Shown piece after piece: positions 2,930-63,029 of a stretch of DNA of 64,000 nucleotides (position 1 is the stretch's first letter; each line of letters starts with the position of its first letter). Source of the DNA: Spirometra erinaceieuropaei. Its lineage: Eukaryota > Platyhelminthes > Cestoda > Diphyllobothriidea > Diphyllobothriidae. The notes beneath the pieces are model-generated. The model was not told where the DNA came from and did no database searches. It saw nothing but the letters and a program-made list of their open reading frames with translations. The position numbers and the translations under genes are program-made. Location: positions 1-64,000 of the forward strand of contig CACRXP010001305.1 in the NCBI GenBank assembly GCA_902702965.1. Reading direction: 5' to 3'.

Positions 2930-3190
2930 CTTTTGTAGTTAATAACGGTCTGTCGTGAATTAGCGTGGAGACAGCGCATTCAGTACACGTAAGCAGCAGC
3001 TCCGTGACAGAGATCGATTCGGCGGTATGCGAGCACGAGATTCAACGGCAGCCACGTGCTATAAATACTGCACTCCTGGTGCCACCATCACCTTTATCAG
3101 CGAATGTCTCTGATGATGGATTCGAGTGAGAATCCGAAACGTCAGGCAAATAAATTTCTTGTTCCAGTGATCGCATCGTCATCTTCCGAG
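2930..3190 (+). repeat. Dispersed repeat R1, 3' portion, carrying the hammerhead-like core
   Basis: The block around 3040-3180 (CACGTGCTATAAATACTGCACTCCT, split here as CACGTGCTATAAATA then CTGCACTCCT, followed by the hammerhead-like core and AATAAATTTCTTGTTCCAGTG) has counterparts at 34125-34625 and 37395-37925. A TATAAATA motif near 3059-3066 lies about 45 bases upstream of the conserved core in this copy and at a similar distance in the other two. The element class (SINE-like, or the LTR of a Penelope-like element) is unresolved. Confidence 0.65.
3105..3148 (+). ncRNA. Hammerhead-ribozyme-like motif, best-preserved copy
   Basis: The order of elements matches the hammerhead consensus. TGTCT (3105-3109) can pair with AGGCA (3144-3148) as stem I with one G-U pair. 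CTGATGA is at 3110-3116. GGATTC (3118-3123) pairs perfectly with GAATCC (3130-3135) as stem II around a GAGTGA loop. GAAA follows at 3136-3139, then CGTC at 3140-3143, so the predicted cleavage site follows C3143. Stem III would be the self-complementary ACGU, too short within one molecule but able to pair between two copies, as proposed for known dimeric hammerheads. One oddity is an unpaired base (3117) between CTGATGA and stem II. The motif is seen directly; catalytic activity is inference. Confidence 0.5.
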
Positions 3191-11728: not shown

Positions 11729-12214
11729 TAATTAGCTTAGCTGTCTTAGAAAGCCTGGTATTGACAATATTTCCAAACCGTGGATAAAATATGGTGCGAG
11801 TCAATTTTTCTGTATCGACTGCAGACGCTCTCGGGGTCTCTGGGAAATTTTATTGACCATCTCAAGGCCCAAACGAAACGGTGTGTCGGCCGCTTGCGAA
11901 CACGTTTGTGCTTTGAGACTCTAAAGATCTCTCTGTCAAACAGACACCTTTAAAATCAGACCAAACCGACATCTGTCGTGGACCAACGCTTGAGGATCCC
12001 ATTCTCCTCGTCTCCTACGAGTCTTTTCCTCACCCATAGTGGACGGTGGCATTTTCCGTAAAATTAATTAAGGAAATACAATGTATCTTCTCGTATATGA
12101 GTTTCCATGTGTTAAACCATATACATTTTATATATCAGACCCCATTAATATTTCATTTCTGTGCTCATTCGGTACATACTTGCATCCTTTTATTAATATT
12201 CGCTCCCTCTTCTT
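11729..12214. other. No gene recognised
   Basis: Unique sequence between the family T element and the start of duplicated block A. No matching sequence lies left of block B, so this marks the outside of the duplication. Confidence 0.4.
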
Positions 12215-13144
12215 CTTCTTCTGTACTTCCGAACAGAGCTTGAACTATCGCCATTCCTATAAGGCGCGAACTTCAGGCTCAATGTTTCCTCTGAAATGAA
12301 TGGAGATATGCACTTGTATTCCTATGAATGGTGGGAGATGTTCATAAAATAACGCAATCGATATGGATCACCCCATGCACTTTACTAGCACAAACAATTT
12401 CAAAATTGAATCCAGATACCAGTGTAGCAAATTGCTATACTCTTCACCCGCACACTATCGCCTGATCCACGTCTTAAGCAATTACTCAGTCCTCGCTCAC
12501 GCTAGGTCTGCCATACTGGACATTCCATGCCCTGGATCCACGGTGAGTCGTTAATTATGTTATGCAATTAGTACTCATCCAATCGCTCGCAAGCTTATTT
12601 GAATTGTCTGCGTTACGGTTCACATACACACTCTGCATATGCGTGACGTGTAGGTGTTCTTCCAGCCCCCTATCTCTTCATTGTCTGAGTGCAGGCGAGG
12701 TAGCGCACTTAAAATCCGAGTGAAATATCAGGCCGCTTAGACGCACTGCAACTCACTACAATCGAAGAAAGGAGTTGTGCCAACATCACGCCATTAGTGC
12801 GACTAACCCTGTTCAAATGCTTCACCGGTGGCGCAACGTATCAGCGCCACCGGACACAGCAAATCCTCTCACAGCGAAAAGTCGAAGGGGAAGGTTACTG
12901 TTACTGGTTTGAAAGTGACGATGCTCAATTAGTAATCGTTGGTTGTCGCCCTCGTCTCAGGTTCAGGTAGCGTAGAATGGGCCTGACCATCATAATTCGG
13001 TTGAGCCCTTCGGTGATTGCTGCATACACAGATAGATTCGAAAGATTTTTATCTGGTCTAAAGAGTGTTTACCAGTTAGATTACGGAAATTCTTGTTCTG
13101 TTGCGCCTCGGGACTCAGTCTAGAGCCCTTGCGGGCATTTTTAT

Positions 13145-13260
13145 GACGACTAGTAATGATACCGGTATAAAGGCCAACAAAGAACAGGGAGTCTGGGAAG
13201 GTCATTTATGGCTTATCAGCCGTCGTCAACTAGGCATCCTCGGCACTAGGTTCGGATAAC
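13145..13260 (-). mobile_element. SINE fragment, minus strand
   Basis: Reverse complement of the body of the tRNA-headed SINE seen at 51853-52160: it shares the GCTGATAAGCCATAAATGACC-like segment and the TTGTTGGCC stretch. A second minus fragment lies at about 13440-13515. Both have weak counterparts in copy B (about 40030-40110 and 40270-40345). Confidence 0.5.
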
Positions 13261-14061
13261 CTGGTATTTGGGTTCAGATTCGCTGGTTATTTAGCGCTAT
13301 CTAGTCCATCGAGTTCGCTTCCCTTCGGTTGCCTCGGGAATAGTGACCATGGTGGGAGGATTACCCACTGATCTGGTTAGGGGGTAGGCGCGGTCGTTGA
13401 GCCTTGAGGCTTAATCTAGAATTATTGTAGGGAGTCGCATAGCGAGCAGTATTGATGTGGGAAAGAATGTCGACGAAGACATGGGAGATTAGGAAGGCCA
13501 TTTCTAATCTGTTAGTCCACATTCATTCTCTACATCTGCTGCAGATTTTGTATGTTTAAGATTAAAAGAGGTCACTTGTTCTGGCCAATGATGGACCTAA
13601 TTAAGCCTGAGTCCTTCACAAGACTAATGAATATGAAGATTAGTGAAGTGACCGTGCAGATTGAGGCGACTGCATACAAACACCTTACGTTATCGGGGTA
13701 GGGTTGTGATAGGCCGGCGACAGCGTGTGTTCTCGACCACAGACTGGAGCTGTGTAGGTGGCTGCCATCACATTCACTGCTCTCAGACCCACATCCGATC
13801 GCCATGACATTGTCTTGTCACTGGCGCCTCGTGAACGAGGGAGGAAAGAGCGCGGCGCAAGCGTCACTATAAACTAATTCGCACTCAAGTTACCGTGCTG
13901 CATACAGTGGACGACGTGCTGTCAGTGCAAGAAAAGTGAAAAAAATAGGGTGCAAATGATGCTGCAAAAGTCGTCACCGCTGCATCCACTTCATGTGTCA
14001 CACAGAGAACATCGTCGCTCACGAGGACTGTACTCTCCCCTAATGGTCCTTTCTGTGTGAC

Positions 14062-14104
14062 TGTCTCTGAGGAAGGGTTCGAGTGCGAATCGGAGACGCT
14101 GGGC
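14062..14104 (+). ncRNA. Hammerhead-like repeat core, degenerate
   Basis: TGTCT-CTGAGGA-A-GGGTTC-GAGTGC-GAATCG-GAGA-CGCT-GGGC. The stem II pairing is mostly kept, but GAAA has become GAGA and the cleavage triplet is altered, so this copy is probably inactive. The counterpart in copy B is at about 40978-41022. Confidence 0.45.
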
Positions 14105-14131
14105 TAACTAACTTTCTGTTCTCACGATCGC

Positions 14132-14164
14132 TTCTTCTTCTTCTTCTTCTTCTTCTTCTTCTTC
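14132..14164. repeat. (CTT)n microsatellite
   Basis: Run of about 11 CTT triplets directly after the hammerhead-like repeat tail, at the same place as a CTT run in copy B (about 41071-41095). Confidence 0.9.
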
Positions 14165-14194
14165 GTCTGAATAGTGTTGTATCTATGGTAGATG

Positions 14195-14460
14195 AGCATT
14201 CATTGATCCTTTTAGAGAGCATTCTCGATTCGTTGTGCATTGAAACTCGATTTAGAGTTTCGCAGACTGTCGCACAGCGACTGGTAATATATGCAGACAA
14301 GGAGAGATCGTGGACTAATGACCAGAGGGTGTGGACTTAAACCCCAGACATTACCGAGCCTTGAGTTAGGAAAGACTGACTGTGGGACGACTAATAAACT
14401 AGAAGTGGCCATCTCAGTCTCCTTTTTCTTTGCCGGTAGTCTTTTTCTGCATATACTAGT
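14195..14460 (+). mobile_element. SINE, degenerate, copy A
   Basis: The body AGAAGTGGCCATCTCAGTCT, then a TTTGCCGGTAGT stretch and CATATACTAGTACTGC, corresponds to the SINE body at 51990-52060. A worn tRNA-like head precedes it. The same insertion is present in block B at about 41130-41405, so it predates the duplication. Confidence 0.6.
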
Positions 14461-14778
14461 ACTGCATCTCATTGTGTCCATGTGACTACAAAAAATATAT
14501 CTAACTATATAAACGGAATGCGGTTTTTTCCTATGTGCAGACCCCAGTGAGGGCAAAAACTGGAAGCGCGCATGATAATCGTTCGAGAAAACATGAAAAA
14601 GACTACAGCTCATAATAAGGCGTAAAAACATCCAAGTGAAGCAAGGAAATGAGTTCCAGCACCCTTTATCGGCGACTATATTTGATGAGAGATTCGAGTG
14701 ATAATTCGAGATGTCAGGCTAATAAACCTCATGGTTTAGCGATCGTATGTTTGTCTTCTGAGAGGACATACGGGTCAG

Positions 14779-15062
14779 ATGTGGTTGTGTAGCCGCACCT
14801 GAAGTAAACAAACCCCAGCCACCTGTAATACGGGACGGATGGTAATAGGGGTTTTTACAGGCGGGGTCGGGGAACGCACAGGCGACGGGGTCAAGTGGTC
14901 GTATGCGAAAGAAAAGCTATTGAGAATGCGCGGTTGTACTTTGAGTGGTTGGGAAAGTGTTGCCCTACCGCTAACTCCAACCTTTACTCCTAACTCCAGC
15001 CCCTAACCCTAACCCCTATCCTCGCAGTATTGTGTCCGTCAGGTGGGGCTACATAACTACAT
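14779..15062 (-). mobile_element. Inverted-repeat element with telomere-like repeats, copy 2
   Basis: It begins ATGTGGTTGTGTAGCC and ends GGGGCTACATAACTACAT. The telomere-like part is on the right here as CCCTAACCCTAACCCC (about 15001-15016), so this copy is inverted relative to that at 4582-4903. Block B has no such element at the matching place. Confidence 0.75.
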
Positions 15063-15104
15063 CTTACCGATCTTAGTCTCCTGACAGTGAAACGGGGTCC
15101 TTCA

Positions 15105-15486
15105 CCCTACAATTGCCATCTTTCAATCCATAAATAGTTTGGAGTCCTATTTTTATGTATAAATTAGCCGTAGACATGCTTTCCCATCAAACTACCATAA
15201 TAAACAATATTTTTTAAAGTTATTTCTTTAAAATATGCCTGAATGTAGAGGGACGTCGAAAATCAGTAGAAAATTTGCATACTATATAGGTAATCGTTGT
15301 TTTACCGAGTGCCATCCGTGCAAGCAGCCCCAGTGAAGTGCATTCGAAAGACAACACATAGTTGTGTCAGCAGTTTTCTTGAATAAAATCCCAAAATAAT
15401 CAATAAATCAGCCCCGCTTAAGTAATACTTAATGATTGAGAATGCTATTCATAACTTTGGTTAACATTTCATAAGATCGGTTACTG
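15105..15486. mobile_element. Right arm of a family T long-inverted-repeat element (copy A)
   Basis: It matches the right arm of the complete element at 41921-42866 in block B and ends GATCGGTTACTG. The left arm is missing, replaced by the telomere-motif element and a deletion. Confidence 0.65.
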
Positions 15487-18400
15487 TGTTAGTAGACACA
15501 TCGCGTTCACAATAGCTGATTAGTTGCGCTGCATGATCTCTTACGCCAAGGGGATCGATGGCTTATTCTCTGCGCTGCTTAAGTATTCTTCCAAAGTCAT
15601 CACGATGTCCAGCGGAGAGAGTGCACAACATGGGCGGAAATAAGATGCGGAGATAAGGTAGTTAATTGTATGGGTAAACCCACAACCGTTATTTTTAGAA
15701 ATTATGGAAGAATACGATAAAACAGATTATTACTAGCGGATTTTTGATAGAGGTTATGCAAGTATACTAACGGTTTAGATCACGGGAATCTATTAAGGTG
15801 CATGCATTGAAATTGACTGGCAGTATCTCCCGTTTTGCAAAGTGAAAGTTGACTCAAAACATATTAGCCTACGGCGAGAAGACTTTGAAAAAAACGTTGT
15901 TTATGGGTAAAAAGACGGCTTAAGATGCCCTATTTAAATCGAAATAACAGTAAAACCCGTTCACATTGGGCTATGCAGTGATTCATACGACGTTTTCCAG
16001 AACGGAATTACGTTTGTTTAACTGATGTGTCAAGATTTTGAGTAGGAAGGATTGCTGGATGAGTCTGGTTTTGGGTGTCAAAGACCGAACGATTCCGTGA
16101 CGGAATAAGCGCCTCGACTCTGCGAGGTGTTGGAGGATGCGTCAGTGTTTTACAGCTACCTTAGGTTCAGAAAAGGGCACTTCGACTTTCGCTTATCAGA
16201 GCATTAACGGTTTGTACTACAATTTCGCACTGCAGTTGCATTTATTCACAACGTTGACAAACCTCCGGGGACAGATTTATTAGAATGACAATTAACCAGT
16301 CCATCAATGTCCAACAGCTCAGGATTGTAAAAACGGATTTTTTTATAAGGTGCTTGTAATGGCCAGCCGGATTGTCTGGCGGCAATCTAGTTTGGCATGT
16401 CTTGAGCATTTCCAACAGATAATTCGCAAAATATCGAAACTACCGATGCCCTCTCATTTTAGGACAATACTTGAAGATGTCAGGGTGGGGTAAATCGAAA
16501 TTAAGTATTAAATTAATTTGATCAAAAGAGATACGAGTTGAAAAGGGAAGATTTTGATCGGATTTTTATGAATTTTACAAATTTCAGCATAAATCCATCT
16601 TCAGACAACATTTTAGCTAAAGATATGAAACGGCCTGCAGTCGCTTAACAGGGACGACCTTCTTTAAAGTGAATACTGATTGAGAAATTTTGAAAATGGC
16701 CAGTAGATGAGGAGCTGATTGTTTGTGTGGAATTAAGATATTTGTTTTCGAAACACAAATACTCATAAGTTTTTTAAATTTATACTGATGAGTCTATCTG
16801 ATGGTGTGACTTTAGGAGAAAGGCGTACCCGCGAACGTATACCGGATTGGTTTATGTTGGCGACTTATTCATTCAGTCCTGTTATAAGAGATCAGAAAAC
16901 AGGACAAAGCATTGTCCCAAAAAGCTCAGTACCTTTTCTGGACCCTGCCTAAGGATTAAAAAAGAAGGGGACCTCGTCAGGCTACTTGGAATAGTTTTTA
17001 TGAAATAAAGTTCTCATATGACGCGAAATGTGTCGGACTTAGTGTCGCCACTCAGATAGCCAAAGTCCATTGTAATAAGGATTCGGTAACATGTATGCAA
17101 CCATAAAGACTTCGTTAGCTATGCAAAATTCGAAAAGGTTGCCTCCAGTGAGAACTGCAGCAAAATTAGGATCGTGGAGGGCGCAAGTACTAGTCCAACA
17201 CCGCAAAGACAGCGGCACAAGGTTTACGTATTCTGCGAGTGCTTTTGTCTATAATACGAACGAAGGAATAAATGTTTGCGCACCCCATGTAGGGGCCGTA
17301 ATTAAATTTTTGCGGCTCGGGAAAGTCTGCTATTACAATGAGCATTAAGTAAGGAGTAGTTTGTTGCAAGGCCCTGTTTACAAAACTTCCTGGGAGATTG
17401 ACCAATAAAGAGAGAGCACACACAGTACACAGTCGCTCGGATTCCCGTTCAAAGGTCTAGGCCAACTACCACTAAAATGCTTCGCGGCGTCGGTTTTAAA
17501 AAGCGCTGACGAAATCTTTGTACAAACTAAAATTTGAGCCCATTTTAGGTCGGAAGACGTCCTCAAATGACCTTGTTATTATTTGTACACCAGGGTCTAT
17601 TCCTGCTCACCATGTGGACATGCAACTGAACTTCAAGCAAAAGGGAAGGTTAAGAAATCTTAAAAAAACTGTTATACGCCTCGCAGCTATTGCATACAGC
17701 CAAAAAGGGTCAAATGCACTCAGCAATAAAGTTATTTATGCACATTAAGTACGATTCACGCACGATACTGTCACTGAAACAGAACTGAGCCTGCATCTCA
17801 TCTTAAGACTGACACGGGACGCTTTATGCTGTTAAAGCCCCTTTTAGCCATCTTTGGATGGGTGACAAACTAATCCTACTCATCATTTGTGTATAGTGCT
17901 CGAGGATATAAACCCGGAAAATCTGAATTCCAATCTGGTTATCACTTAAACAGTAGGACTGACTGCGTCAGTCTCGAATTCACCTGACAAAAAGCAAACC
18001 TATAAATACACCTTTTCCTGGAGCAGGATACTCAAGACAGATTGAGATGTTGCTCACGACCTAAACGGTGCTTCACAGGCCAGTGAAATTTGTAAAGTAG
18101 CGGCTTTACGTCAAACCTCCAGTCAACTCCCTACAGGCTTCCCATCTATCCACACCACATATAAACTCAACCCTTCTATCCAGAGCCTATTTTTTACCTT
18201 ACAAGAAATCCGCCGCCCTTTTTATCTGAAACAGTGGGCTAATAGTATTAACTTAAACGACTACCAACTCATGAAATGATTTGCATCTCCTCTCACAAGA
18301 GGACCAAACTGCTGAGCATCCTTTCATAAGGTGACCTGCGTTTCACCTTCCACATCTCAGTGGTGTCAAGTAATAAGACCTGACTCGCCGTCGTTGAAGT

Positions 18401-19597: not shown

Positions 19598-20141
19598 TTA
19601 TCCTTCTTCCAATTCTTCAGACCCTACCTTTTGCTGCTGCCCCTGCTTCTCCTCCTCTCCCTCTCCTTCAAACTCTTCACCCTCTCCTTCGCCTTCCTCC
19701 TCTTCTTCCTTCTGCTTCTCGTCTTCTTCATCTTCTTCGTTCTCCTCCTTCCCGGGCTGCTCCTCTTGTTCTTCCTCTTCCTCCTCCACTTCAGACTCCT
19801 CACTTTCCCCCGCTTCTTCATTCTCTTTTTTCTCAGGCCTCTCATCCAGCTCCTCATCTTTTTCCTCTTCTTTGAGCTCCACTCCATCAGGCCTCTGCTC
19901 CGTTGTCCCTTCTTCTTCCCCTACTTCAGGCTCTTCACTCTCCCCCTTTTCTTCATTCGTTTCTTCCACAGGCCCCTCTTCCTGATTTTCTTTTTCTTCT
20001 TCTTCTCCTTCTTTTTCGGGCTCCAATCCACCAGGCCTCTTCTCCGTTGTCCCTTCTTTTTCCTCTACTTCAGGCTCTTCACTCTCTCCCTCTTCCTCAT
20101 TCTTTTCTTCCTCAGGACCCTCTTTCTGATTTTCTTCTTCT
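19598..20141 (-). CDS. Glutamate-rich repeat protein A, C-terminal part (5' end in gap)
   Basis: An open minus-strand frame runs from the gap edge to a TAA at 19598-19600, about 180 residues ending EELEEG. It is dominated by Glu with Gly, Lys, Pro and Asn. Two imperfect 46-48-residue repeats are visible, each built around NQ(K/E)EGP, GESEEPEV, EGTTE and RP(G/D)G, followed by a more uniform acidic tail (EEEEEEQEEQPGKEENEED). The frame passes through the gap edge without stops, so the start lies in or beyond the unsequenced 945 bases. It is the paralogue of the gene at 46043-48346, shown by matching 3' flanks as well as composition. The LINE sequence beginning right after the gap suggests that the 5' part is interrupted, shorter than in copy B, or misassembled. 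By analogy with copy B the product would be secreted. Confidence 0.6.
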
Positions 20142-21086
20142 NNNNNNNNNNNNNNNNNNNNNNNNNNNNNNNNNNNNNNNNNNNNNNNNNNNNNNNNNNN
20201 NNNNNNNNNNNNNNNNNNNNNNNNNNNNNNNNNNNNNNNNNNNNNNNNNNNNNNNNNNNNNNNNNNNNNNNNNNNNNNNNNNNNNNNNNNNNNNNNNNNN
20301 NNNNNNNNNNNNNNNNNNNNNNNNNNNNNNNNNNNNNNNNNNNNNNNNNNNNNNNNNNNNNNNNNNNNNNNNNNNNNNNNNNNNNNNNNNNNNNNNNNNN
20401 NNNNNNNNNNNNNNNNNNNNNNNNNNNNNNNNNNNNNNNNNNNNNNNNNNNNNNNNNNNNNNNNNNNNNNNNNNNNNNNNNNNNNNNNNNNNNNNNNNNN
20501 NNNNNNNNNNNNNNNNNNNNNNNNNNNNNNNNNNNNNNNNNNNNNNNNNNNNNNNNNNNNNNNNNNNNNNNNNNNNNNNNNNNNNNNNNNNNNNNNNNNN
20601 NNNNNNNNNNNNNNNNNNNNNNNNNNNNNNNNNNNNNNNNNNNNNNNNNNNNNNNNNNNNNNNNNNNNNNNNNNNNNNNNNNNNNNNNNNNNNNNNNNNN
20701 NNNNNNNNNNNNNNNNNNNNNNNNNNNNNNNNNNNNNNNNNNNNNNNNNNNNNNNNNNNNNNNNNNNNNNNNNNNNNNNNNNNNNNNNNNNNNNNNNNNN
20801 NNNNNNNNNNNNNNNNNNNNNNNNNNNNNNNNNNNNNNNNNNNNNNNNNNNNNNNNNNNNNNNNNNNNNNNNNNNNNNNNNNNNNNNNNNNNNNNNNNNN
20901 NNNNNNNNNNNNNNNNNNNNNNNNNNNNNNNNNNNNNNNNNNNNNNNNNNNNNNNNNNNNNNNNNNNNNNNNNNNNNNNNNNNNNNNNNNNNNNNNNNNN
21001 NNNNNNNNNNNNNNNNNNNNNNNNNNNNNNNNNNNNNNNNNNNNNNNNNNNNNNNNNNNNNNNNNNNNNNNNNNNNNNNNNNNNNN
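20142..21086. other. Assembly gap (945 N)
   Basis: Run of undetermined bases at the edge of the polypyrimidine tract of gene A. Its size may be an estimate. ORF translations that cross it are meaningless. Confidence 1.
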
Positions 21087-24320: not shown

Positions 24321-27300
24321 AACACTCGTTAGTCTTGGAAGGAGTGGCTTGAGTTCTAGTTCCATGCAGCGACAGAGAATGGCAGGTGGCAAGGCACTGA
24401 TGAACTTCGGTTTGATGAAGTGCTTATGACCCATCCTGTAGACCCCAGTGGTGGACCAGCTGCGCCAGGTGCGTCTGAGCGCATGTTTGTGTTTCCGGTA
24501 CCAGCTACTGGTGGTCAGGGTTATGATTGGCTGAATGAAGGCAAACAAGCCCGAAACAGGGCTGTATCAATCTACCCCCAGACTCTGTCGTCTCCCCCCC
24601 CTGATAAGAAAATGTGTCCGGTTAAACTATAGAGGAAACGCATCAGTTAGGTCAAAAACCAACCTACTTATTTTAAAAAGTAGATTGTGTTGATTTGGTT
24701 GAGTTTATTGTACATAATTAATAGGTTTGTCAGGCCTTGCCAACAGAATCGAGTGTACGACCCATCAGTACGGCAAAAGTAAATGTGCCTTAGTTTACTC
24801 TTCTCTCAATTTTGGTGGGCTCTCCTCCCGTCTTTCCGCCTCCAAGAAATGAAGTTACTGACTTATGGTAAGCAGTTTTCCTCATCCTCTCAACCCCAAT
24901 TACTTCATCATGCTGGCATGCACTCGCGAGAACAGGAAGAAAAGCGCGCAGGCCCTTCCTCTTACACCTCGCTCGTTACACACCAGACATGAGATTGTAG
25001 TACAACGCTGTGACCACAGGCTTCCCTTAGAGCATCTCGTATTTACTATGCTTGCATGTGCTTTTTGTGACCTATTTTTTCAAAAAAGAAACCTTTCCTT
25101 GCCGTGTGCAGGGCAATAAAATCCTCACTCCGCTTAAGATTGTTGTGCCACGACAAGGGAACAGTGTATCCGAGGAAAGGGAAGTGCTCACCGGATGGTG
25201 AGGATTGTTCGGCTGAAGTTTCGAAGAATTTGAACAGCTCTCCATTATCAAAGGGTCTAGTGCAAAAATCGATCAGAATTTTGAATACACAACCGAATTA
25301 GTTGGCCCTTGGCTAAAAGATTTTTTCTTCCTTCGCCGCCTTGGCCTACTGGACGTCGCTTGTGAGTGTTGGTAGCCTCATGTGTTATGTGTCGTCACCT
25401 CAATTGGGTTCAGTTGCCGTTTTGCTCCCTCCTTTGGGAAAATTGATCGATGGGCCGTGCTTGCTCAGTATTCTTAAGCTCCCTATGACTGTCTTGTCCT
25501 CGTCATGGCGTAGGTAGTGACGCAGGACTTTCTAGGTCGCAGGAAGGTCTAGATGCCTGTTTATGGAGTTAGCATCTGAGTAAAAAGCCTCAAATATGAA
25601 ACCTTCTGTCCCTGAGGTGCCCCGGCCTAAGACGGCTGCTCCTTTAAAGTCAAAACTGTAGCCAGTCTAAGTGAAGAAGTGAAGAAGAGTCGAGCCCCGA
25701 AACACTTCGTTTATTATCCTGAGCTTTCAGACTCGTAAAGGAGTCCATCGTCAAGGTTAATGGCAGAGATAGGACAGGCGGCAGTTATAAGGCACGAAGG
25801 CCCAATCATCGACCGACGTCACACTACTGGAGGTGACTACGAAGGGCTCTGTACGCCGGCGCCAGATCGATAAATCGATTGACCGAGTTCTCATCCGAGG
25901 CCCAGGCTTCAGTCAATTTTCGGCCTGTTTTGTTTACGGCGTAGGCGACTGTAGCCAGTCTCTCCGAGTTGCCAGTTTGTGCTCATGTAGGCGGATCCAG
26001 TGAGCACTTCCCTCCCCTCAGATTGTTGACACGGATATCTTACGTTTGCTAACCTGAGGTTAAGTGTATGCTCGTGGTAAGAAAATGCCAACTGTTGTTT
26101 AATAAATTCATCAGTGTTTTGACACTCATGCTCTACTGGCAGACGTATGCATACCATCTACCCTTATTTTGAGAATTATTTACGGCCTAACTGCTCCCCG
26201 CATCGAAGCCTTTTTAAAAAATGAGCTTTCAGCTTACTAAAGAAATACGTGTAGATTGCGCAGAACGATGACACGATATAGACATTGTAGCAGTATCCGC
26301 ACCTCGGGGGAAGGGGAAGGGGAGGGAGGGGCGGGGTACAGATAATCGAATGTTATCTTGCTGACAAAGAGACAACCAAAAACTCTGCAGGAAAACACCT
26401 AATTTGAAAAATAAAGTTGCCAGTTCTTCACAGTCTTTCCCTACCGCACGCATATATTACATCGTTACCCATATTTACAGCTAACAGGGCCAACTTCATG
26501 CTTCCGCTACCTGCGATTGCCAAAATTACGTATTGATCATAATAGATTAGTAAAAATCTTACCGGTAAAACACTTTCTGTGACGATTTCAATATGCTGAT
26601 AACCTCGTCCCGTTTACTTGGAAACACTGAAAATTACTGCGGTGTTTTCTACTGTACAGTAATGAGAAAGAACGGCTTTACAGTCTGCTTCTGCTCTATG
26701 GTGGAGAAATGTGGTCTGGTTTTATAATGGGAATCTTTCTGATGGCAAATTCGGCTATAATATTTTCTGTACGCCGATGAATTTATTCTGTGCCCTTGAA
26801 ACATTAAGCGCGGTTGACTAGCCTTCCATACACAACTTAAAAGCCTGATGAAGTCTCGGGTGGTGGTAGTATTCAATGCCAGTTTGGTTGAGATTTTTTT
26901 ATGCTGCTGAACTAAGACTAGTGTGTCCACTGAAACAAACCTACCTTGCTCCCAATTTTGCACGGCTCCCATATGCTTCTTAATCACTTACTTACTTCAC
27001 AAATATTCGGATTTCGATTTGACTATGAAGGGGAACCTAAAACTGCCAGGAATGTTGGAGGTTAAATCCATGAGGGGATACTTTTCTGAAGACATTCTTG
27101 CGTACGACTCAAGTTGACGTCTTAACTTGACGTCAGTCCTAATTCCACTTGCGTATTTCTAGACCTTACCCCGGCAGCCTCTCTCAGTCCTTTTCAACGT
27201 TACTTGTACTAATGCATAAACCTCGATGTTAATCTCAGACGCTCATGTACGCTTATGAACTTTCGTCAGAAAGGTTGCCTGAAGCTCGCTGCATGTAGGT

Positions 27301-29188: not shown

Positions 29189-32089
29189 CTAGCCAGCAAC
29201 AAACCTGTCGGGCCAGTGGACGTGACGACCAGATCGTGTGTGGCGAACCGGAGGGGGGCTGTCGCCAGTAGGTGGAGGAGGCCGCACTGTCTGAGGCGGG
29301 GTGCGTTGTTGAGGTGAGGAATGGTCACTGTCGTCGATGTAGGCCGGCTTGACGCGATCAATGCTGACTGTGTCGGTCTTGCCGTTGCGTTCGATGACAA
29401 CATCTTTGTCAGATCGGCGAAGGACTTTATACGGCCCGTCATAGGGTGGTTGGAGTGGTCGTCGGACAGCGTCATGCCGAACCCAGACGAAATCGCACTT
29501 ATCCAAGTCGGGTGGGATGAAGGAATTGGCCGGTGACGCCCGAGGGGGCGTTGCGCGGAGATTTCGCATGGCACTACGTAGTCGCTCCACATAACTGCAA
29601 GGTTCGAAAAACGTTAGCGTGTTTGAAGGAGAAACTAACTCACCGTGCAGTCGTAGGGAGGTTCCGTAGACAAGATCAGCTGCAGTGCAACCGATGTCGG
29701 CCTTGAGAGTGGAACGGAGGGACAACAGCACCAGGGGAAGGTGATCAGACCATCGGGAAGGATCAGGCTGGGCCATAAGGGAAGTCTTGAGCTGTCGATG
29801 GAAGCGTTCGACGAGACCATTTGCTTGAGGGTGGTACGCTGTTCGGATTCGGTTGGTACCGAGAAGGGATGTGAGTTCGAGAAACAGCGTGGACTCGAAT
29901 TGGTATCCGCGGTCAGTGGTGACAGTCGCAGGAACTCCAAAATTGGACACCCAATGAGTCAAGAAAGCTCTTGCTACGGTTTCGGCACTGATGTCCGGAA
30001 TGGGCACAGCAACCGGCCACCGAGTAAGGTGATCAATACATGTCAGCATATAGGTAGAACCGTTAGATGGTGGCAGCGGACCTACCAGGTCAATATGCAC
30101 ATGACTGAAGCGTGCATCAGGGGTGGCGAAAATTCCTGGCGGAGTAATAGTATGCCGATGCGTTTTGGCTCGTTGACATGGTAGACAGGATCGGGTCCAA
30201 GGCCGTACATCCCGGTTGATGTTGGGCCAGACGAATCGGTCAGTGATGAGTTTCACTGTCGCCCGGGCTCCAGGGTGGGATAGATTGTGAAGGACGTTGA
30301 ACACGTGTCGTCGTAAAGTTGCAGGGACAAAAGGACGTTTGTGTCCGGTAGAAAGGTCACACGTGATGGTGCCTGTGCCAGTGGGAAGGGGGACATCTTG
30401 AAGGCGTAAAGAAGAGTTCTCGTGGCGGTATTGGGGAAGTTCGCCATCCGATCGTTGAGCCTCAGCCATGAGCGTGAAGTCTATGGCGTCTGTTGTGATG
30501 GAAGCCATCTCGATTCTTGAAAGAGCATCAGCGACCACATTTTCCTTACCGTGGACATGTTGGATGTCGCAGGAAAACTGTGAGATGAAGTCTAGATGAC
30601 GAATTTCACGGGGCGAGTATCGATCGGGAGAGGCCCTCAGTGCGAAAACGAGTGGCTTGTGATCCGTGAGAACAATAAATTCACGACCCTCGAGGAAATG
30701 GCGGAAGTGCCGGATGGATAGATAGACGGCAAGGAGTTCTCGGCCGAAGACACTGTAGCGGGTCTCTGCTGGGCTGAGCTTCTTCGAGAAGAAAGCCAAA
30801 GGCTGTAGAACACCACGAACAGTTTGCTGAAGTGACGCACCAACGGCAGTGCTGGAAGCATCTGTCATGAGAGTTAGTTGGGCATCTGAGCGAGGATGGG
30901 CAAGCAATGTTGCGTCCGCAAGTGCGGCCTTGACGTCATTGAAGGACCTGACGGCCTCCTCGGTCATCACTAGTGTCTTCTTGGAGTGGGTCAGCAAGCT
31001 GTTGAGAGGCTGCAGTATGGTGGCACCATGGGGAAGAAAACGGTGATAGTAGTTCACCATCCCCAAGAATCGGCGTAATTGGCTGATGGTTGTCGGGACG
31101 GGGAACGTTGATATGGCCGAAACTTTTTCCGGGACGGGCTTTATCCCATCTGAGTTCACTTCGTGACCAAGAAAGATAAGGCTGGGGACTCCAAACTCAC
31201 ATTTAGCAACATTGATGATAACGCCGTAGGAGTCGAGCCGTTCGAAGAGCTGTCGAAGATGAATCTCGTGTTCAGCAGCGTCAGAACTAGCCACTAGCAA
31301 ATCATCAATGTAGGCGTAGACGAGGTCGAGACCTCGCAGAACCTGATCAATGAATCGCTGAAAGGTTTGAGTGGCGTTCCTCAGACCAAAGGGCATACGA
31401 GTGAACTCGAATAACCCAAAAGGAGTGGTCACTGCAGTTTTCGGAACATCACTGGCCTCGACTGGGATTTGGTGGTAGGCGCGCACAAGGTCGATCTTAG
31501 AGAATATTCGCTTACCATGTAGCGAAAGAGTGAAGTCTTGGATGTGCGGGACGGGATACTGGTCGGGGACCGTCGCTGAGTTCAACGCCCGATAGTCACC
31601 ACACGGTCGCCAGTCGCCGTTCTTCTTGGGGACAAGGTGGAGGCGTGATGCCCAGCAGCTGTCGGACTGTTGGATGATGCCGAGCTCAAGCATGTGATCG
31701 AACTCTGCCTTGGCGATCTTCAAACGGTCCGGAGCAAGACGACGTGATCGGCAAGATTTGGGAGGTCCGGTAGTGGAAATGTGGTGAGTGACTGTGTGTT
31801 TGATGTCCACTTCACGAAATGACGGGTTGGTCAGGCGGGGAAACTGCCTGAGGAGTGAGTGGAAAGGACAGTCAGAGATGGGCATGGCAGTGAGAGGGTT
31901 GACGCAGGGGTTCACATCGGATTGACATCGGGCATGAAGGTCGGTGATGCAGTCAACGAGTCGGCGATTCCTCAAATCGACTAGCAGATTGAAGTGAGTT
32001 AGGAAATCGGCGCCTATGAGGGCGACGGAAACGTCGGCAATAATGAAAACCCATCGGAAAATTCGACGTTTTCGGGATATTGCGGTTTT
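29189..32089 (-). CDS. pol: Ty3/Gypsy pol polyprotein (end of protease, RT, RNase H, integrase), gag missing
   Basis: An open frame of about 966 codons runs from just after a TAG at 32090-32092 to a stop at 29189. It opens with the end of the aspartic protease ([17 protein letters not shown]). Counting from the codon at 31975: reverse transcriptase has [12 protein letters not shown] (D162) and YIDDLL (222-227). RNase H has TDAS (D372), RELLAVY (E413), TDHKPL (D438) and ADALSR (D483). Integrase has an H563-H567-C597-C600 zinc site and the D629, D688, E724 triad with D688-E724 spacing of 35 intervening residues, then a GPY/F-like module at 843-855. Every catalytic residue I could check is present and no stop interrupts, implying a young copy. 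The gag gene, protease active site and 5' LTR are absent, so it is 5'-truncated. Assignment near the CsRn1 group is from memory. Confidence 0.9.
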
Positions 32090-37394: not shown

Positions 37395-37925
37395 TAGGCC
37401 AGAAATAGACATTTGAGCTCCCCTGATTTTGTCTATGACACACTTAGACTATTTATTGAGAAACGCAACGCGGCTTCCTGAATGACTACATGCCTTGTGC
37501 TCAAATAAATAAGATTGCCGATATGCTGCCGAAGGTCATAGTCAGTACTGACACATTCCCTGTGCATGGAAATCAGTCGGGTAGGAAGGGCGCAGGCGAG
37601 CAAAAATGCCAGTGACAGTGAGTAAAATAGCCATGTAATCGTCACACCTGCATCCAACACAGGGGACTAAATCGTGGTCATTATTGACTTGAACGCTGTC
37701 TAACAAGTCGTCGTCGCATTAAATAATACCCCCAATGGTGATGACGAGAGCTGTTGATTAAAGTAGGTGTGTGACCCCACGGTAGCTGCGTGTTATAAGT
37801 ATTGCACTCCTTGTGTTCCCACAAACGTTGTTTGCGAGTGTCCCTGATGATGGGTTCGAGTGAGAAACCGAAACGTCAGGTCGACAAATTTCTTGTTCTA
37901 GTGGTCGCATCATCGTGTTCTGAAT
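37395..37925 (+). repeat. Dispersed repeat R1 with hammerhead-like end
   Basis: Counterpart of 34125-34625. The core at 37839-37880 has CTGATGA (37844-37850), GGGTTC, GAGTGA, GAAACC, GAAA and CGTC-AGG. All catalytic bases are present; stem II has one mismatch and stem I is weakened (TGTCC against AGGTC). A TATAAGTATTGC stretch lies about 45 bases upstream. Confidence 0.65.
37844..37880 (+). ncRNA. Hammerhead-like core with intact catalytic bases
   Basis: CTGATGA, stem II of six positions with one mismatch, GAAA and CGTC are in register exactly as in the 3105-3148 copy, including the extra base after CTGATGA. Predicted scissile base C37877. Confidence 0.45.
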
Positions 37926-38606: not shown

Positions 38607-39639
38607 ACTCCCTACTCCAAATGGGGTTTTACAAAAACACCAAAAAGTCTCTCGAAGAGTTTGAAGGGGAGAAATACTTTAAATGGACGTGAAGGTACTC
38701 GTTGTTTTCTGAACCATCTTCCTACAGTGTTCTGACGGCATTAGATTCGTGGTCGTCCACACACCCAGATCTTCTTTAATACTTCCGGACAGAACTGTAC
38801 GCTCGCCCTTCTTATGATGTGAAAACTTTATATTCTAGGTTTCCTCTGGAATAATTGGGGATATGTACTTATGCGTCTGTGAAGGGTATGGGAAGGGACT
38901 CCTGATGTCCATAGAATAATGAAACCAATATGAATAACCCCATAAACTTTGCCAGCACAAGTAATTCCAAAAATAAATCCGAATACTAGGGTAGGATTTT
39001 GCTTTACTGTTCACCCGTACACTGTCACACGATCTATTTCTTAATAAATTACTCAGCCTCCGCTCAAGCTAGGTCTGCCTTACTGGCATTCCCTGCCCCG
39101 AATCCACTGTGCGTCGTGAAGTATGTCGTGCAGTTATTACTCACCGAATCAATCCCGACTTACTTGGATGCCCTACGTTACGGTTCACACGCGCACGCTA
39201 CGAAAGTGTGTCGCGTAGGTGTTCATCCAGCCACCAATCTCGTCTGAGTGCAGACTAGATAGCACTTCTAGAATTCGAGTGAGACGGCACTGCAGTTCGA
39301 TACTACCGAGAAACGAGTTGTGCCAACGGCACTCCACTTGTATGACTAACCATGCTGTAACGCTTTGCCGTGTGCGTAACGTGTCAGCGTCCGCAGAAAC
39401 AGCAAGTCCTCTCATTGCAAACAGCCGCAGGGGAAAATTGTTTGTGCTGAATTGTAGGTCGAGAAGTTTGATTAGTGATCGTTGGTTGCCGCCGCCGTCT
39501 CAGGTTCAGGTGGCGTAGAATTGGCCTGTCCATTGTTATTGGTTGGGTCTTTCGCTGACCTCTGCGCACACGGATAGATTTGAAAGATTTTCTATGGTTA
39601 AAAGAGGGTTTATCAATCAGGTTATGGGTATGCTCGGTC

Positions 39640-39960
39640 CGCTGCGGCTGACAGGACTCATAAAATGTTTGCAATGAATACGGAGTATACCGTACGCTAC
39701 ATAGTGGGCATCAATAAACGGGCCGCTGCGGTGCTACTTGATCGGAAATTTCACAGTCATAAGAAATTTTATAATTAGGAAATCAAAAAGTGCCAGATCT
39801 TCATGTATAAACTTAGGAGGTGGCTTAACTTTCGACTGAATGAATATAGAAACAAATGACCCTTGTGCAAATGTTCAATAAAAGGTATTTAGACATATAA
39901 GGACATTGAAAATCAATGGAAAAATGCGAAAATGCCCATTTATTCACTTCTTACCGAAGG
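39640..39960. mobile_element. Partial family T copy inserted in block B only
   Basis: The sequence GTGGGCATCAATAAACGGG to TTTAGACATATAAGGACATTG parallels 42400-42620 of the same family. It is bracketed by two related ~30-base stretches (TCAATCAGGTTATGGGTATG at about 39614 and GGTCAGATTGCGGGTATACT at about 39971). The matching point in block A (about 13080) has a single such stretch and no insert. Confidence 0.55.
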
Positions 39961-40357
39961 TCGTTTGCCGGTCAGATTGCGGGTATACTTGTTCGGTTGC
40001 ACCTTGAGATTCAGTTTAGAACCCTCGCAGGCGACCAGTACTAATACATGTAGAAATTTCAATAAGGATAGGGGAGTCAGTCGTAGATTTGTATAACTTG
40101 GCATCTGGGATCGGATTCATTAGTTATTTAGCCTCTCTAGTATAACGGATCGGCTGCCCTGTCGGTTGACTCGGGCAAGGCTAACCATGAAAGGAAGGTC
40201 ATCCACCCATCTGGTTAGGGGACAAGCGCGGTCGTTGAACCTTGGTGTTCAGTCTAAAATTCTGGCGACCAGTATTCATGCAGGTAAGAATACCGTCTAA
40301 GACATAAGAGATTAGGTAGGCCATTTCTGGCCTGTTTGTCCAGAACCATTATACATA

Positions 40358-40359
<2 letters not shown>

Positions 40360-40390
<31 letters not shown>
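40360..40390. repeat. (AT)n microsatellite
   Basis: About 31 bases of alternating AT in block B, absent from block A. Confidence 0.95.
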
Positions 40391-40394
<4 letters not shown>

Positions 40395-40977: not shown

Positions 40978-41022
40978 TTGTCCCTGAGGACGGGTTCGAG
41001 TCAGATTTAGAGGAGTCAGCTC
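40978..41022 (+). ncRNA. Hammerhead-like repeat core, degenerate (block B)
   Basis: TGTCC-CTGAGGA-C-GGGTTC-GAGTCA then a decayed 3' half ending GTCAGC. It is orthologous to 14062-14104. A further worn copy lies at about 41608-41650, matching 14685-14730 in block A. Confidence 0.4.
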
Positions 41023-41129
41023 AATTAACTTCTTGTTTGCGCTATCGTTTATTCTGCTTCTTTTTCCTCCTCTTCTTCTTCTTCTTCTTCTTCTGAGTGA
41101 TGTTGTATCTATGATAGGCGGGCATTCGT

Positions 41130-41405: not shown

Positions 41406-41920
41406 TGTTTTTTGCGCGCTGCCGAAAACAACATGCATTTTTATTTGAAAACCCAGAGTAGGGCAAAAAACATGAAGCGGGAATGGAAATTATTCAAAAA
41501 ACTCTCGACTAAAAGTATACTTTATGCGAAGACGGAAAGCCTGCGATCGAAGTAAGGAGGCAAGTTCCAAGGCCTCCTTATTTTTGACGGTATTTGCTTA
41601 GGAGTTCGAGAAACATTTCAAAATTTCGGACTAATAAACGCCTTAGTAAAGCGACAGAATATCCTTCTTCTGCGAAAACATACGTTCCCAAGTCGTAGAC
41701 ATATATCGAACTAGACACTTCAGGATTTTAAAAGAATTTGAGGAGGACGGAAATTATAACGATTATATTTTGAAGTTTAAAAGTTTTAATCTACCAAGAT
41801 GCCATTTGCATTTTACCAAGTGACCGGAATGATTTCACTGCAACCAACGAGTACACTCCGATTCGTCTGTTTGTATCGCTTAGTTTTCTCTTAGAGTCAA
41901 TACATGCTCCAAATTATAGC

Positions 41921-48346: not shown

Positions 48347-48398
48347 ATTATCTGGCTGCAAGAAAACCGTCTGTCTAACAGTCAAGATTTTGCCTCCA

Positions 48399-48406
48399 TA
48401 TTTATA
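48399..48406 (-). promoter_or_regulatory. TATA box of glutamate-rich gene B
   Basis: On the minus strand TATAAATA lies 53 bases before the chosen start codon at 48346, which would place transcription start near 48370-48375. This position supports the 48346 start over the upstream Met at 48385. Confidence 0.6.
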
Positions 48407-53611: not shown

Positions 53612-53655
53612 TGTCTCTGATGATGGGTTCGAGCAGGAATCCGAAAGGTTAGGCT
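53612..53655 (+). ncRNA. Hammerhead-like repeat core, cleavage site mutated
   Basis: TGTCT-CTGATGA-T-GGGTTC-GAGCAG-GAATCC-GAAA-GGTT-AGGCT. Stem II and both catalytic boxes are intact, but CGTC is GGTT. Followed by AATAAAGCTCCTGTCTCAG, the usual tail of this repeat. Confidence 0.45.
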
Positions 53656-55080
53656 AATAAAGCTCCTGTCTCAGCGACGGTGTCTTCTTCACGACCGCTT
53701 CCTGGGACTCGTCTCTCCACATCTATTGACAGGTAAGGTGCTTAGCCTTAAGGCGAGCCTCTAGACCGAGATCTGGTTGTTAAAGAATGGTCCCCCAACT
53801 GGCGGTCCACACCTATTAGGTTAGGGCTCCGCCGCCAGACAGTCGGTTTGCCAGACCTCTGTCCCCCACGTTCTGTCAACACTGCCCCTGCCGGTCCGCG
53901 AATATTTGTTCGCTAAACGCATGCATGCCTCCGCTACAGCTAACCCTTCCCGAATGCCATCTTACTGCTAGCCACCCGTGGCCAAACAGTTCCCTCGGTT
54001 CGTAGTCATAGGGTTCCCAATGTTCGTTTCTGTCTCTGCATACCGCCACGCTCCTTGCCGGTTGTTTTTGAAAGGAACAAAACAAGTCACCGTAACTATG
54101 CCCACTTCGTTAAGGCTCGTAAAGTGGACATCGTCCATATAGAGGGTAGAACTGTAGAAACGAGTAGAAGCACTCACACAGTAGAACACCAATATCTCTC
54201 ATTAACTTACTTCATTATACGTCAGTATACATATTTTTTGTCCAAATTGATAAAATACATTTCATATTTCTTTGCCTTGCGAAATTCTCACGCCAGAAAG
54301 CGCAGACATTGTACATTGTATATTCTATATGATGTGTTAGAACAAGAATGTGCAGTTATTAGTAGAAAAAAACTGAAAAAGTCATGACATAGGAAAAGCC
54401 AATTTATCTTACGGGAGTGTAAAACAATTGTTGCGTTTGTAGACTCTGCCCTGAATGGCATTTCAACAAGTGATCTCACCAAATGTTTCATTTCTGTTTT
54501 CCCAACAATAACAAAAGATAGAACAGAATCATCCACATAATGTTCAGTCATCTCGTGAGCAGGCATAAAGGAAACATCCTAACTTTTGACCGGAGTATGA
54601 CTGTGAGGAATTTTGTTCAGCCTCGAAAAATTGGACTGTTCACATTTTGACTGTTAAATCAAAAAGTCCTATGAACGTTGAAGTGGTGGATTCTCTAAAA
54701 CGGCGACTTAAAATTCATTACATGGAATGCGTTCGAATTAATTGATTTGCCCAGAGAGGAACTAAACATTTATCAGAAATGGAGTTTATTTCCTCGGGAC
54801 CATTTTCGCGTTTTCTTCACTTCCCCTTCTCTTTTAAAGATGATTTCTTGATTGCTTACTACTGCCTTTAAGATCGCCTTAGTTTTCTTTCTTACTCGAG
54901 GAATTCCATTTTTAATTGGGTTTTTCGATTTATGAATTGAGACTAATTTACGCCTGACTCATCGATTTCCTGCTGTTAAGTCATTTGACTGTCTTTTCGA
55001 ACGGACTTCCAGCAGCTGCCATGCCCTGTTAATCGGCCTTTAAAGTCCTGACGCACACGTTCATACGTGTCTCTGCTTTC
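53656..55080. other. No gene recognised
   Basis: AT-rich in the second half; short ORFs only. Confidence 0.4.
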
Positions 55081-55124
55081 GTCTCCGAAAATGGGTTCGA
55101 GCAAGAATCCGAAATATCAGACTA
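55081..55124 (+). ncRNA. Hammerhead-like repeat core, degenerate
   Basis: GTCT-CCGAAAA-T-GGGTTC-GAGCAA-GAATCC-GAAA-TATC-AGAC, then TAATAAAGCTCTTGTCCCAG. Stem II is intact but the CTGATGA box is lost. Confidence 0.4.
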
Positions 55125-55747
55125 ATAAAGCTCTTGTCCCAGAGATCGTGTCTCCTTCTTCAATAGGTGTCTCTGTTAGGGGCTGTCATCCAAAAAACGG
55201 GGCTGGTATTCAGACGGCTCCCATTGCCTACAAGCTAAATACGGCGCCGGATGAACCCAAGCAGGCTGTTTATCACTTCGTGTTGACACCGCCTACACTT
55301 CCCATTGATCTACCGCCGTCTTTCTGCTTCCTGAAAAATCCGTTGTCTCCCCCCTTCCACAGTGTTGTTTACGGCAGTCTCCAACTTGCGTTTTCACACT
55401 GTGCAGACGAAGTTGCAATCTGGTATTCCTGATTTGTTCTGATCTACCACGCCTCAATTCGCAGTCTTTGTCACACTCTTCTGATTCTTAAAATTTGTCC
55501 TTTTTCCGAATTTTCTTCTCCTTTTTCTCCTGATTCCTCGCCTCCCGGATCTTTAACCCTTACCATGATTAACTCATTCTTAACTTCTTGACCGTAATTA
55601 TGCTTCCTTCTGTGCCCATAATCGTCCAGTTTACACGCCTTTTTCTTCGTCTGCTTTTCTTTTTCTTCGCGTTCTTATTTTTGGTTTGTTGTTGTCTCAG
55701 TGCTTATCCAGGTACTTCCATAGCAGACCACTGTTTCTGCTTATTTT

Positions 55748-61960: not shown

Positions 61961-62723
61961 GCCGTTTTCTTGCAGTTGGCGGACAGCAAAGATTCAGTTG
62001 AATTATTCTTGTCCGCTAAAATGCGCTATAAATCCCTTACACCCTCTGTAATTTCTGATCGTTTACTCAAGCAGTGAATTACTAAAATAGGTGTTCGTAG
62101 TTAAGAAATGGCTAAGAAGCTTACTCTTTGCTACGTGACTGACTTTACATTTTTATATTGTAAAATAAAACTCCGGAAGTAAGATTCACAAATCAAGCCG
62201 GGACCGCGTATAATATAGCAATTATTTACAGAGAAGTACTTTGAAGATAGACGGCGCAAAAAACAGCGAATGTATTTGTAGAGATAACGCACTCCAATAA
62301 TCAATACTGAACACTATGTAAAACGATGTGCAAACTACGGGGTTGAAAATAGACATAGCACGCGGAAAGCATTTGTTGGCTGCGCAAGCGAGTACGAAAA
62401 GGATAGGAAAATAGAGGAAGGCAGAAGTTTTGCAAACGTAAGCTTCTGGTTTTGCCGAATTTTCAGGAATCTTCCAGATTCTTATTTATTTGAGACCACT
62501 TACAGATACGCTCATTTGACCTAAAAATTTTCTAGTAACATTTGAATCGCTTGTTAGATTGGCTCTACATTGCGGAATGTTTGGGATCTTTCTTAGCATG
62601 AACATTTAGTTTACTTCTGCAAATTAGATTTCGTTTTAAAATAAAAAGGTTTTGTGTTAACCTTTGCCTGTATTCAGTCAGTCCAAAATTATAAGGTTTG
62701 TCGCTTTTTGGTTTCCTCAGATT
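61961..62723. other. No gene recognised
   Basis: AT-rich, short ORFs only. Confidence 0.4.
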
Positions 62724-62871: not shown

Positions 62872-63029
62872 GACTACTTCCTGGGACTCGGCTCTTCGCT
62901 TCTATTGGCAATTTCCTCAGATATTATCTACGAAGTTGGAGTAGATCAGTTTATTCAAGATCGGTCGGCTCAGACCGAGAATTTAAAACATGAATATTTG
63001 GGCCAAAGTCTATCAGCCGCAGCGGAGTA

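What the first reader, a model, noticed from the sequence alone, without database searches (positions are those of the whole stretch)
3105..3148. A dispersed repeat with a hammerhead-ribozyme-like core
Seen: CTGATGA, a perfect 6-bp stem II, GAAA and CGTC occur in strict order, flanked by TGTCT and AGGCA that can form stem I. The same register recurs at 37844, 53612 and 62802 (minus), and in worn form at 14062, 34530, 40978 and 55081. In copy 62802 and the 14062/40978 pair U is replaced by G at the one core position hammerheads allow to vary. Known: hammerheads occur in schistosome retroposons and Penelope-like elements, often with tiny stem III and dimeric action. The self-complementary ACGU here fits that design. 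Against it: one unpaired base sits between CTGATGA and stem II in every copy. I do not know this family as described.
Basis: partly seen in the sequence, partly recalled or inferred. Interest (0 to 1): 0.82.

Follow-up and report, generated by a model that had tools for sequence, protein, structure and literature searches.

The report
Tapeworm Penelope element's hammerhead ribozyme motif
The repeated motif is most likely the worn end of a common tapeworm jumping gene of the Penelope type, a kind already known to carry a stripped-down self-cutting RNA; the ribozyme-like reading is right in outline, but the kind is not new.

Summary
A strict hammerhead descriptor hits 3 loci, against 1 hit in 300 shuffled windows.

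The element is most likely a Penelope-like retrotransposon (PLE) of a tapeworm close to Spirometra. A further copy at 25754 (minus) lies 72 nt downstream of a decayed PLE C-terminus, and a second PLE C-terminus follows it. Relatives of the first are Spirometra, Sparganum and Schistocephalus proteins, several with RVT_1 and, weakly, GIY-YIG. The 62.8-kb copy is a 189-bp head-to-head inverted repeat flanked by an 11-bp duplication, one arm longer, as described for rotifer PLEs.

PLEs are already reported to carry minimal type I hammerheads without helix III, thought to act as dimers. The 'extra' unpaired base is the U of an AUG that opens an ORF inside the core.

Self-cleavage is untested. Rfam finds no hammerhead, covariation in 11 copies does not exceed shuffles, and a rival hairpin folds better. 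The source genome could not be searched (16 requests unanswered).

New member of a known kind; interest low.

The parts
3105..3148 (+). Best-preserved minimal hammerhead-like core: stem I strands 3105-3109 and 3144-3148, CTGATGA 3110-3116, extra T 3117, stem II 3118-3123/3130-3135, GAAA 3136-3139, CG-T-C 3140-3143 with predicted cleavage after C3143
   Evidence: cleavage inferred, not shown
3116..3190 (+). ORF start overlapping the core: ATG at 3116, reading MDSSENPKRQANKFLVPVIASSSSE, about where homology to other copies stops (PLE 'tail', short form, inferred)
   Evidence: 23 of 26 residues match the N-terminus of Spirometra protein P0001
3060..3066 (+). TATA-like box TATAAAT 50 nt upstream of the core (pseudo-LTR promoter, inferred)
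   Evidence: 4 of 10 copies scanned have such a box 35-50 nt upstream; 3.6% of random places have TATAA in -65..-25
14067..14141 (+). worn copy in an old duplicated segment
   Evidence: E 1.1e-15
   Evidence: E 5.1e-7 with a profile that did not contain it
25827..25982 (-). decayed PLE ORF C-terminus (...KTGRKLTEAWASDENSVNRFIDLAPAYRALRSHLQ stop), 72 nt upstream of the 25754 core
   Evidence: 87% over 45 aa to P0003, E 3e-19
25508..25666 (-). second, more divergent decayed PLE C-terminus right after the tail (partial tandem); one alignment (P0004) starts it at 25705, so the border with the tail is not sharp
   Evidence: E 5e-7 to P0011
34535..34650 (+). worn copy with long tail (to ORF nt about 110) and about 450 nt of upstream sequence shared with the 37844 copy
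37844..37923 (+). copy with exact CTGATGA and GAAACGTC, one mismatch in stem II
40983..41058 (+). worn copy, duplicate partner of 14067
41594..41668 (+). very worn copy, duplicate partner of 14682
   Evidence: (E 1.5e-4)
53617..53732 (+). copy with long tail, GAAAGGTT instead of GAAACGTC, in-frame stop in the ORF start
55085..55159 (+). worn copy, core CCGAAAA
62723..62911 (.). 189-bp insertion: head-to-head inverted pair of the repeat; minus arm from 62802 down ends at ORF nt about 72, plus arm from 62802 up runs about 37 nt further
62712..62722 (+). left target-site duplication TTTCCTCAGAT
62912..62922 (+). right target-site duplication TTTCCTCAGAT
   Evidence: 63 of 20000 random 189-bp segments share an 11-mer at their ends

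Best explanation
The repeat is the pseudo-LTR/ORF-start junction of a Penelope-like retrotransposon family of a diphyllobothriidean tapeworm, left behind in many worn, mostly coding-free copies. It carries a minimal type I hammerhead without a usable stem III. The element's AUG lies inside the ribozyme core (A9-U-G10.1). Proposed working: the pseudo-LTR promoter drives transcripts of tandem units. The ORF is translated from the embedded AUG. The RT starts copying inside the ORF start, about nt 72 or nt 110, so each new copy ends with a short or long 'tail' of the next ORF; self-priming on a complementary strand gives the palindromes. Two ribozyme copies, or one copy helped by the element's protein, pair ACGU with ACGU as stem III and cut after GUC, separating units of a tandem transcript. 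Shown here: the motif, its conservation, PLE C-termini beside one copy, the palindrome with flanking duplication, and two classes of 3' ends. Inferred: promoter, RT start sites, dimer cleavage and its role.
For: PLE C-terminus 72 nt upstream of the 25754 core and a second one just after it. Relatives of the first: 13 proteins with E <= 10 of 78 candidates, all from Spirometra, Sparganum or Schistocephalus; of 10 of these scanned, 7 have RVT_1 (P0004 below cut-off; in P0012 it belongs to a fused LINE) and 4 a sub-threshold GIY-YIG match. Main-family N-terminus matches a Spirometra protein, 23 of 26 residues. The 62.8-kb copy has an inverted pair, unequal arms and an 11-bp duplication, matching A. 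vaga Penelope: inverted pseudo-LTRs, optional 31-bp tail on one, 9-10 bp duplications, palindromic head-to-head junctions, TATA box, first 12-22 aa of the ORF inside the repeat (PMC3846280 passages). Of 28 pairs of copies (the duplicate pair 14067/40983 left out) homology stops at ORF nt 68-74 in 12 and at nt 107-110 in 3, these being the 3 pairs among the copies 34535, 53617 and the plus arm; in the lizard PLE, RT starts 111-118 nt into the ORF, the tail is 30-40 bp, the ORF begins at stem II and the cut is 26 nt after the start codon (PMC11167929); here the cut would follow ORF nt 28. Spirometra and Sparganum genomes are about 10% Penelope, about 198,000 pieces each (PMC8166898 passages).
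Against: Only 1 of 11 copies has PLE coding sequence beside it. The 25754 copy differs most from the main family and its frame shares little with MDSSxNPKRQANK. No full-length PLE protein with the main-family N-terminus was found: the one match, P0001, continues as a LINE, taken here as a chimeric gene model. 13 of the 28 pairs lose homology earlier, at ORF nt 12-58. Ribozyme activity has no direct support: no Rfam hammerhead, covariation not clearly above shuffles, a non-hammerhead hairpin is more stable and better kept (90% versus 76% of cells). No codon-phase signal in two tests.
Confidence: 0.86

Rival explanations
1. Same PLE element, but the hammerhead is dead or only a look-alike: what is conserved is the ORF start plus a simple hairpin (CUGA with UCAG around stem II) used for RNA recognition by the RT. 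(This rival shares the PLE part of the best explanation and differs only on catalysis.)
For: MFE of the 3110 RNA is that hairpin, z -2.71, 1 of 200 shuffles folding as well; the hairpin keeps 90% of cells paired against 76% for the hammerhead, and its covariation score is reached by 11 of 500 shuffles against 33 of 500; hammerhead dimer -22.5 against twice -16.5 kcal/mol for two hairpins; lizard PLE RNA did not cleave without protein (PMC11167929).
Against: GAAA lies in the hammerhead place although the hairpin leaves it unpaired (seen in 3110, 37844, 53617, 55085, 62802(-) and 25754); stem II has both-side changes in 2 of 6 pairs, though it serves both structures; PLEs in general are reported to carry minimal hammerheads.
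Confidence: 0.3
2. A metazoan retrozyme: a small non-coding tandem repeat with a classical type I hammerhead moving through circular RNA, as Sm-alpha in schistosomes.
For: Flatworms carry such elements and many copies here have no coding sequence (PMC7229834 passages).
Against: None of the 26 arrays of Tandem Repeats Finder overlaps a core; no helix III; ATG and, at one copy, a PLE C-terminus joined to the motif.
Confidence: 0.05
3. The block is the 5' end of a LINE (RTE/BovB-like by my reading) whose protein starts MDSS...
For: P0001 has this N-terminus followed by Exo_endo_phos and RVT_1.
Against: Only one such protein in two searches of 4 and 6 candidates; the N-terminal stretch seems to end after 37 codons, the length of the long tail, and is followed by a serine run; a LINE of the same kind is fused to PLE C-termini in P0005, P0010, P0012 and P0013, so such gene models are chimeric.
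Confidence: 0.05
4. Chance resemblance.
For: The motif is short.
Against: 1 strict hit in 300 shuffles against 3 loci; 12 significant profile matches.
Confidence: 0.01

Closest known systems
Minimal type I hammerhead ribozymes of Penelope-like elements (Cervera and de la Pena 2014; Lunse, Weinberg and Breaker 2017; neither text was held, known through citing papers)
   Same: Core order, helix III missing or reduced to ACGU, dispersed copies mostly in non-coding DNA, place in the pseudo-LTR
   Different: One extra base between A9 and stem II in 11 of 11 copies; whether the published ones share it I could not check
Poseidon PLE of Anolis carolinensis, PAc (PMC11167929)
   Different: No activity data here; tapeworm host; PAc's own core sequence not seen
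Penelope families of Adineta vaga (PMC3846280)
   Same: Inverted pseudo-LTRs with tail on one arm, palindromic head-to-head junction, 9-11 bp duplications, TATA box, solo pseudo-LTRs
   Different: Here reduced to a 189-bp palindrome with no ORF between
Penelope elements of Spirometra and Sparganum (PMC8166898)
   Same: Same or sister lineage by protein match; their abundance fits about a dozen copies in 64 kb
   Different: The word hammerhead does not occur in the paper's main text
Viroid hammerhead with an extra core nucleotide (de la Pena and Flores 2001; only its title seen in a reference list; that it is chrysanthemum chlorotic mottle viroid, and where the base sits, recalled)
   Same: An extra nucleotide in the core of a natural hammerhead
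   Different: Unrelated replicon

Membership tests
Penelope-like element | Single ORF with telomerase-like RT and C-terminal GIY-YIG endonuclease | tested here: inconclusive
   Only decayed C-termini are in the window, beside 1 of 11 copies; their close relatives carry RVT_1 and sub-threshold GIY-YIG matches. No intact ORF was seen in the window.
Penelope-like element | Pseudo-LTR repeated behind the ORF, partial tandem arrangement | tested here: met
   At one locus: C-terminus, core with ATG and tail, then a second C-terminus, 25982-25508 minus
Penelope-like element | Optional tail of 30-40 nt of ORF start at the 3' end; inverted pseudo-LTR pairs with target duplication | tested here: met
   3' ends at ORF nt 68-74 (12 of 28 pairs) or 107-110 (3 of 28), 13 of 28 earlier; 189-bp inverted insert with 11-bp duplication
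Minimal PLE-type hammerhead ribozyme | CUGANGA - stem II - GAAA - UH with stem I, no helix III | tested here: met
   3110 and 53617 meet all; 62802(-) all but stem I; an extra base follows A9 in each
Minimal PLE-type hammerhead ribozyme | Self-cleavage as dimer or with protein | not testable with these tools
   Needs an RNA assay; a nested dimer fold exists but is not the most stable
Hammerhead families of Rfam | Covariance-model score at or above gathering, or at least a reported match | tested here: not met
   0 matches at gathering; no hammerhead at E <= 10 in the window or around 3110 and 53617
Hammerhead (structure conserved by covariation) | Compensatory changes above shuffles in stems I and II | tested here: inconclusive
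   3 pairs changed on both sides, 226 of 500 shuffles do as well; covariation score reached by 33 of 500; stem II 88%, stem I 62% of cells paired
Metazoan retrozyme | Tandem array of about 150-400 bp units with type I hammerhead and tertiary contacts | tested here: not met
   Of 26 arrays reported none overlaps a core; tertiary contacts not tested

The most novel reading that the evidence does not exclude
The start codon is built into the ribozyme: A9 of the catalytic core, the 'extra' unpaired U and the first G of stem II spell the AUG of the ORF. Cutting after GUC would remove the first 28 nt of the ORF, AUG included, so an RNA could be either an mRNA or a processed template, not both. The extra core base would be kept because translation needs it, and switching from the stable hairpin to the hammerhead (dimer or protein-bound) would decide between translation and template. 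6 of 11 copies keep the ATG, and no copy has T at the extra position without it.
Probability: 0.2. Interest if true: 0.5.

Novelty: new member of a known kind. Interest (0 to 1): 0.22.

Why it matters
It identifies about a dozen 'dispersed repeats' in a tapeworm window as probable Penelope ends and suggests that the PLE plan known from a lizard and a rotifer (hammerhead over the start codon, internal RT start leaving a tail, palindromic inverted ends) also holds in cestodes, where Penelope makes up about a tenth of two sequenced genomes. It also gives a reason for the odd unpaired base: it belongs to the start codon. The role of PLE hammerheads is called unknown in a review seen here (PMC7761336), and this family, if as abundant as the genome paper suggests, is suited to a covariation and activity test.

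Tried and rejected
Rejected: chance; retrozyme; LINE 5' end; MIR7504 and mir-3202 matches of Rfam at 62735-62860, which are the inverted repeat read as a hairpin, below their gathering scores; C/D snoRNA resemblance at 3099-3180, E 0.2. A 12-bp repeat beside the 37844 copy looked like a target duplication but lies inside sequence shared with the 34535 copy, so it is not one. A 14-bp repeat at 25961-25948 and 25668-25655 is better explained as GIY-YIG coding sequence shared by the two PLE pieces, since both read T-G-Y-S in one frame (my reading). In one search one control used the wrong right flank for the 62.8-kb insert; the control replaces it.

Led nowhere: DNA patterns in viral contigs, 0 matches; P0009 in viral contigs, 4 pattern matches, none a relative; a pattern in the window with a wrong spacing of mine, 0 matches; codon-phase test, no signal; Pfam scan upstream of 25754, no family although the C-terminus is there; tRNA scan, none. 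Papers not held: Cervera and de la Pena 2014, Arkhipova 2017, Lunse 2017.

Full report
What was checked. A profile from these eight finds 12 matches at E 1.5e-4 or better in the window: the eight, the second arm of a palindrome at 62.8 kb, and three new copies with core positions 14682 (+), 25754 (-) and 41594 (+). The reversed window's best match is E 0.82. With the palindrome's plus arm left out because it lacks the 5' half of the core, 11 copies were aligned. A strict hammerhead descriptor hits 3 loci, against 1 hit in 300 dinucleotide shuffles. Two pairs of worn copies (14067/40983, 14682/41594) are partners in one old duplication, so there are fewer than 11 independent events.

What it is. 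In 6 of 11 copies an ATG begins at the last base of the CTGANGA position. In five of these the frame is a version of M[DG]SS.NPKRQANK.LVP.I.SSSS, one of them (53617) with a stop; the sixth, 25754, reads MDSFTSLKAQDNK and has drifted far. Of 28 pairs of copies that BLAST aligns in register, the duplicate pair 14067/40983 left out, homology stops at ORF nt 68-74 in 12, at 107-110 in 3 and earlier, nt 12-58, in 13. The three long ones are the three possible pairs among copies 34535, 53617 and the plus arm at 62.8 kb. A TATA-like box lies 35-50 nt upstream in 4 of 10 copies scanned, against 3.6% of random places with TATAA in -65..-25. The copy at 62802 is a 189-bp insert made of two head-to-head arms, one about 37 nt longer than the other, between 11-bp direct repeats; 63 of 20000 random segments of that length share an 11-mer at their ends.

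The link to an element class came from the 25754 copy. The DNA just upstream encodes KTGRKLTEAWASDENSVNRFIDLAPAYRALRSHLQ and a stop, 72 nt before the core; a second, more divergent version follows the tail. A search with the first one gave 13 proteins with E <= 10 of 78 candidates, all from Spirometra erinaceieuropaei, Sparganum proliferum or Schistocephalus solidus. Of 10 of these 13 scanned against Pfam, 7 have RVT_1 (P0004 below the cut-off; in P0012 it belongs to a fused LINE) and 4 have a GIY-YIG match below the cut-off; P0002 and P0010 show only integrase pieces of other elements. RT plus GIY-YIG in one ORF is the canonical PLE plan (PMC11167929). A Schistocephalus protein, P0014, runs on after the same C-terminus for 25 residues and then reads SDDGLQ, which is what CTGATGATGG could encode at about this distance; its DNA was not seen, so this is only a hint. 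The main family's N-terminus matches Spirometra protein P0001 in 23 of 26 residues; P0001 then becomes a LINE. Since a LINE of the same kind is also fused to PLE C-termini in P0005, P0010, P0012 and P0013, I take these as chimeric gene models.

Against the PLE reading stand these results. That copy differs most from the main family. No complete PLE with the main N-terminus was found. Solo pseudo-LTRs are reported for PLEs (PMC3846280 passages), so the first is not unexpected. The abundance fits as well: Penelope makes up about 10% of the Spirometra and Sparganum genomes, about 198,000 pieces each (PMC8166898 passages).

How it most likely works. In the lizard PLE PAc the ORF begins at stem II of a hammerhead, the cut is 26 nt after the start codon, RT starts 111-118 nt into the ORF, the tail is 30-40 nt, and the ribozyme cleaved only when the PLE protein was present (PMC11167929 main text read in two parts). 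The positional features recur here. I therefore propose the same cycle: transcription of tandem units from the pseudo-LTR, translation from the embedded AUG, internal RT start at about nt 72 or 110, and cleavage at the junction as dimer or with protein. Cleavage here is inference. Folding favours a plain hairpin that pairs CUGA with UCAG, and an explicit dimer hammerhead is possible but less stable by the nearest-neighbour model, -22.5 against twice -16.5 kcal/mol. Covariation does not decide: 3 pairs changed on both sides, with 226 of 500 shuffles doing as well; the covariation score is reached by 33 of 500 for the hammerhead and 11 of 500 for the hairpin. Rfam reports no hammerhead; I recall that its models expect a real helix III, which would explain the miss, but did not test that.

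What is known. Reviews state that PLEs carry minimal type I hammerheads without helix III or the tertiary contacts, that metazoan genomes hold thousands of such dispersed motifs, and that they may cleave as dimers (PMC6155905 and PMC7761336, passages). The original papers were not held. In the held library no paper has hammerhead with tapeworm and Penelope, nor hammerhead ribozyme with Cestoda; two searches do not prove absence from print. The motif is therefore a new member of a known kind.

The one fresh point is the extra base. It is present in 11 of 11 copies, is T in the 6 that keep the ATG and in no other, and is the U of the start codon. Whether the published PLE hammerheads share it I could not see.

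Limits. The source genome could not be searched (16 requests unanswered), so copy number, full-length structure and covariation rest on one window. The host is inferred from protein matches, not known.

Noticed in passing
29189-32089 (-): Long open frame of a Ty3/gypsy-type pol with RT, RNase H and integrase domains (965 aa).
   Followed up: partly
46043-48427 (-): Open frame of 794 aa, very glutamate-rich with internal repeats (periods of 156-195 bp reported); no Pfam match. A similar glutamate-rich repeat frame at 19598-20141 (-) runs into an N gap at 20142-21086.
   Followed up: partly
12214-16109 and 38770-43490: Old duplicated segment, 69-72% identical over its main aligned pieces, carrying two worn copies of the repeat each.
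   Followed up: partly
14963-15013 and 57514-57553: Short runs resembling degenerate telomere repeats (CCCTAA / TTAGGG types) inside the sequence.
   Followed up: no
Proteins P0005, P0010, P0012, P0013: Spirometra gene models that fuse Penelope C-termini to LINE proteins; a warning for annotation in this genome.
   Followed up: no
14131-14168 and 41052-41094: CTT/TTC microsatellites at the 3' ends of the 14067 and 40983 copies, as if the serine run of the tail had slipped and grown.
   Followed up: no
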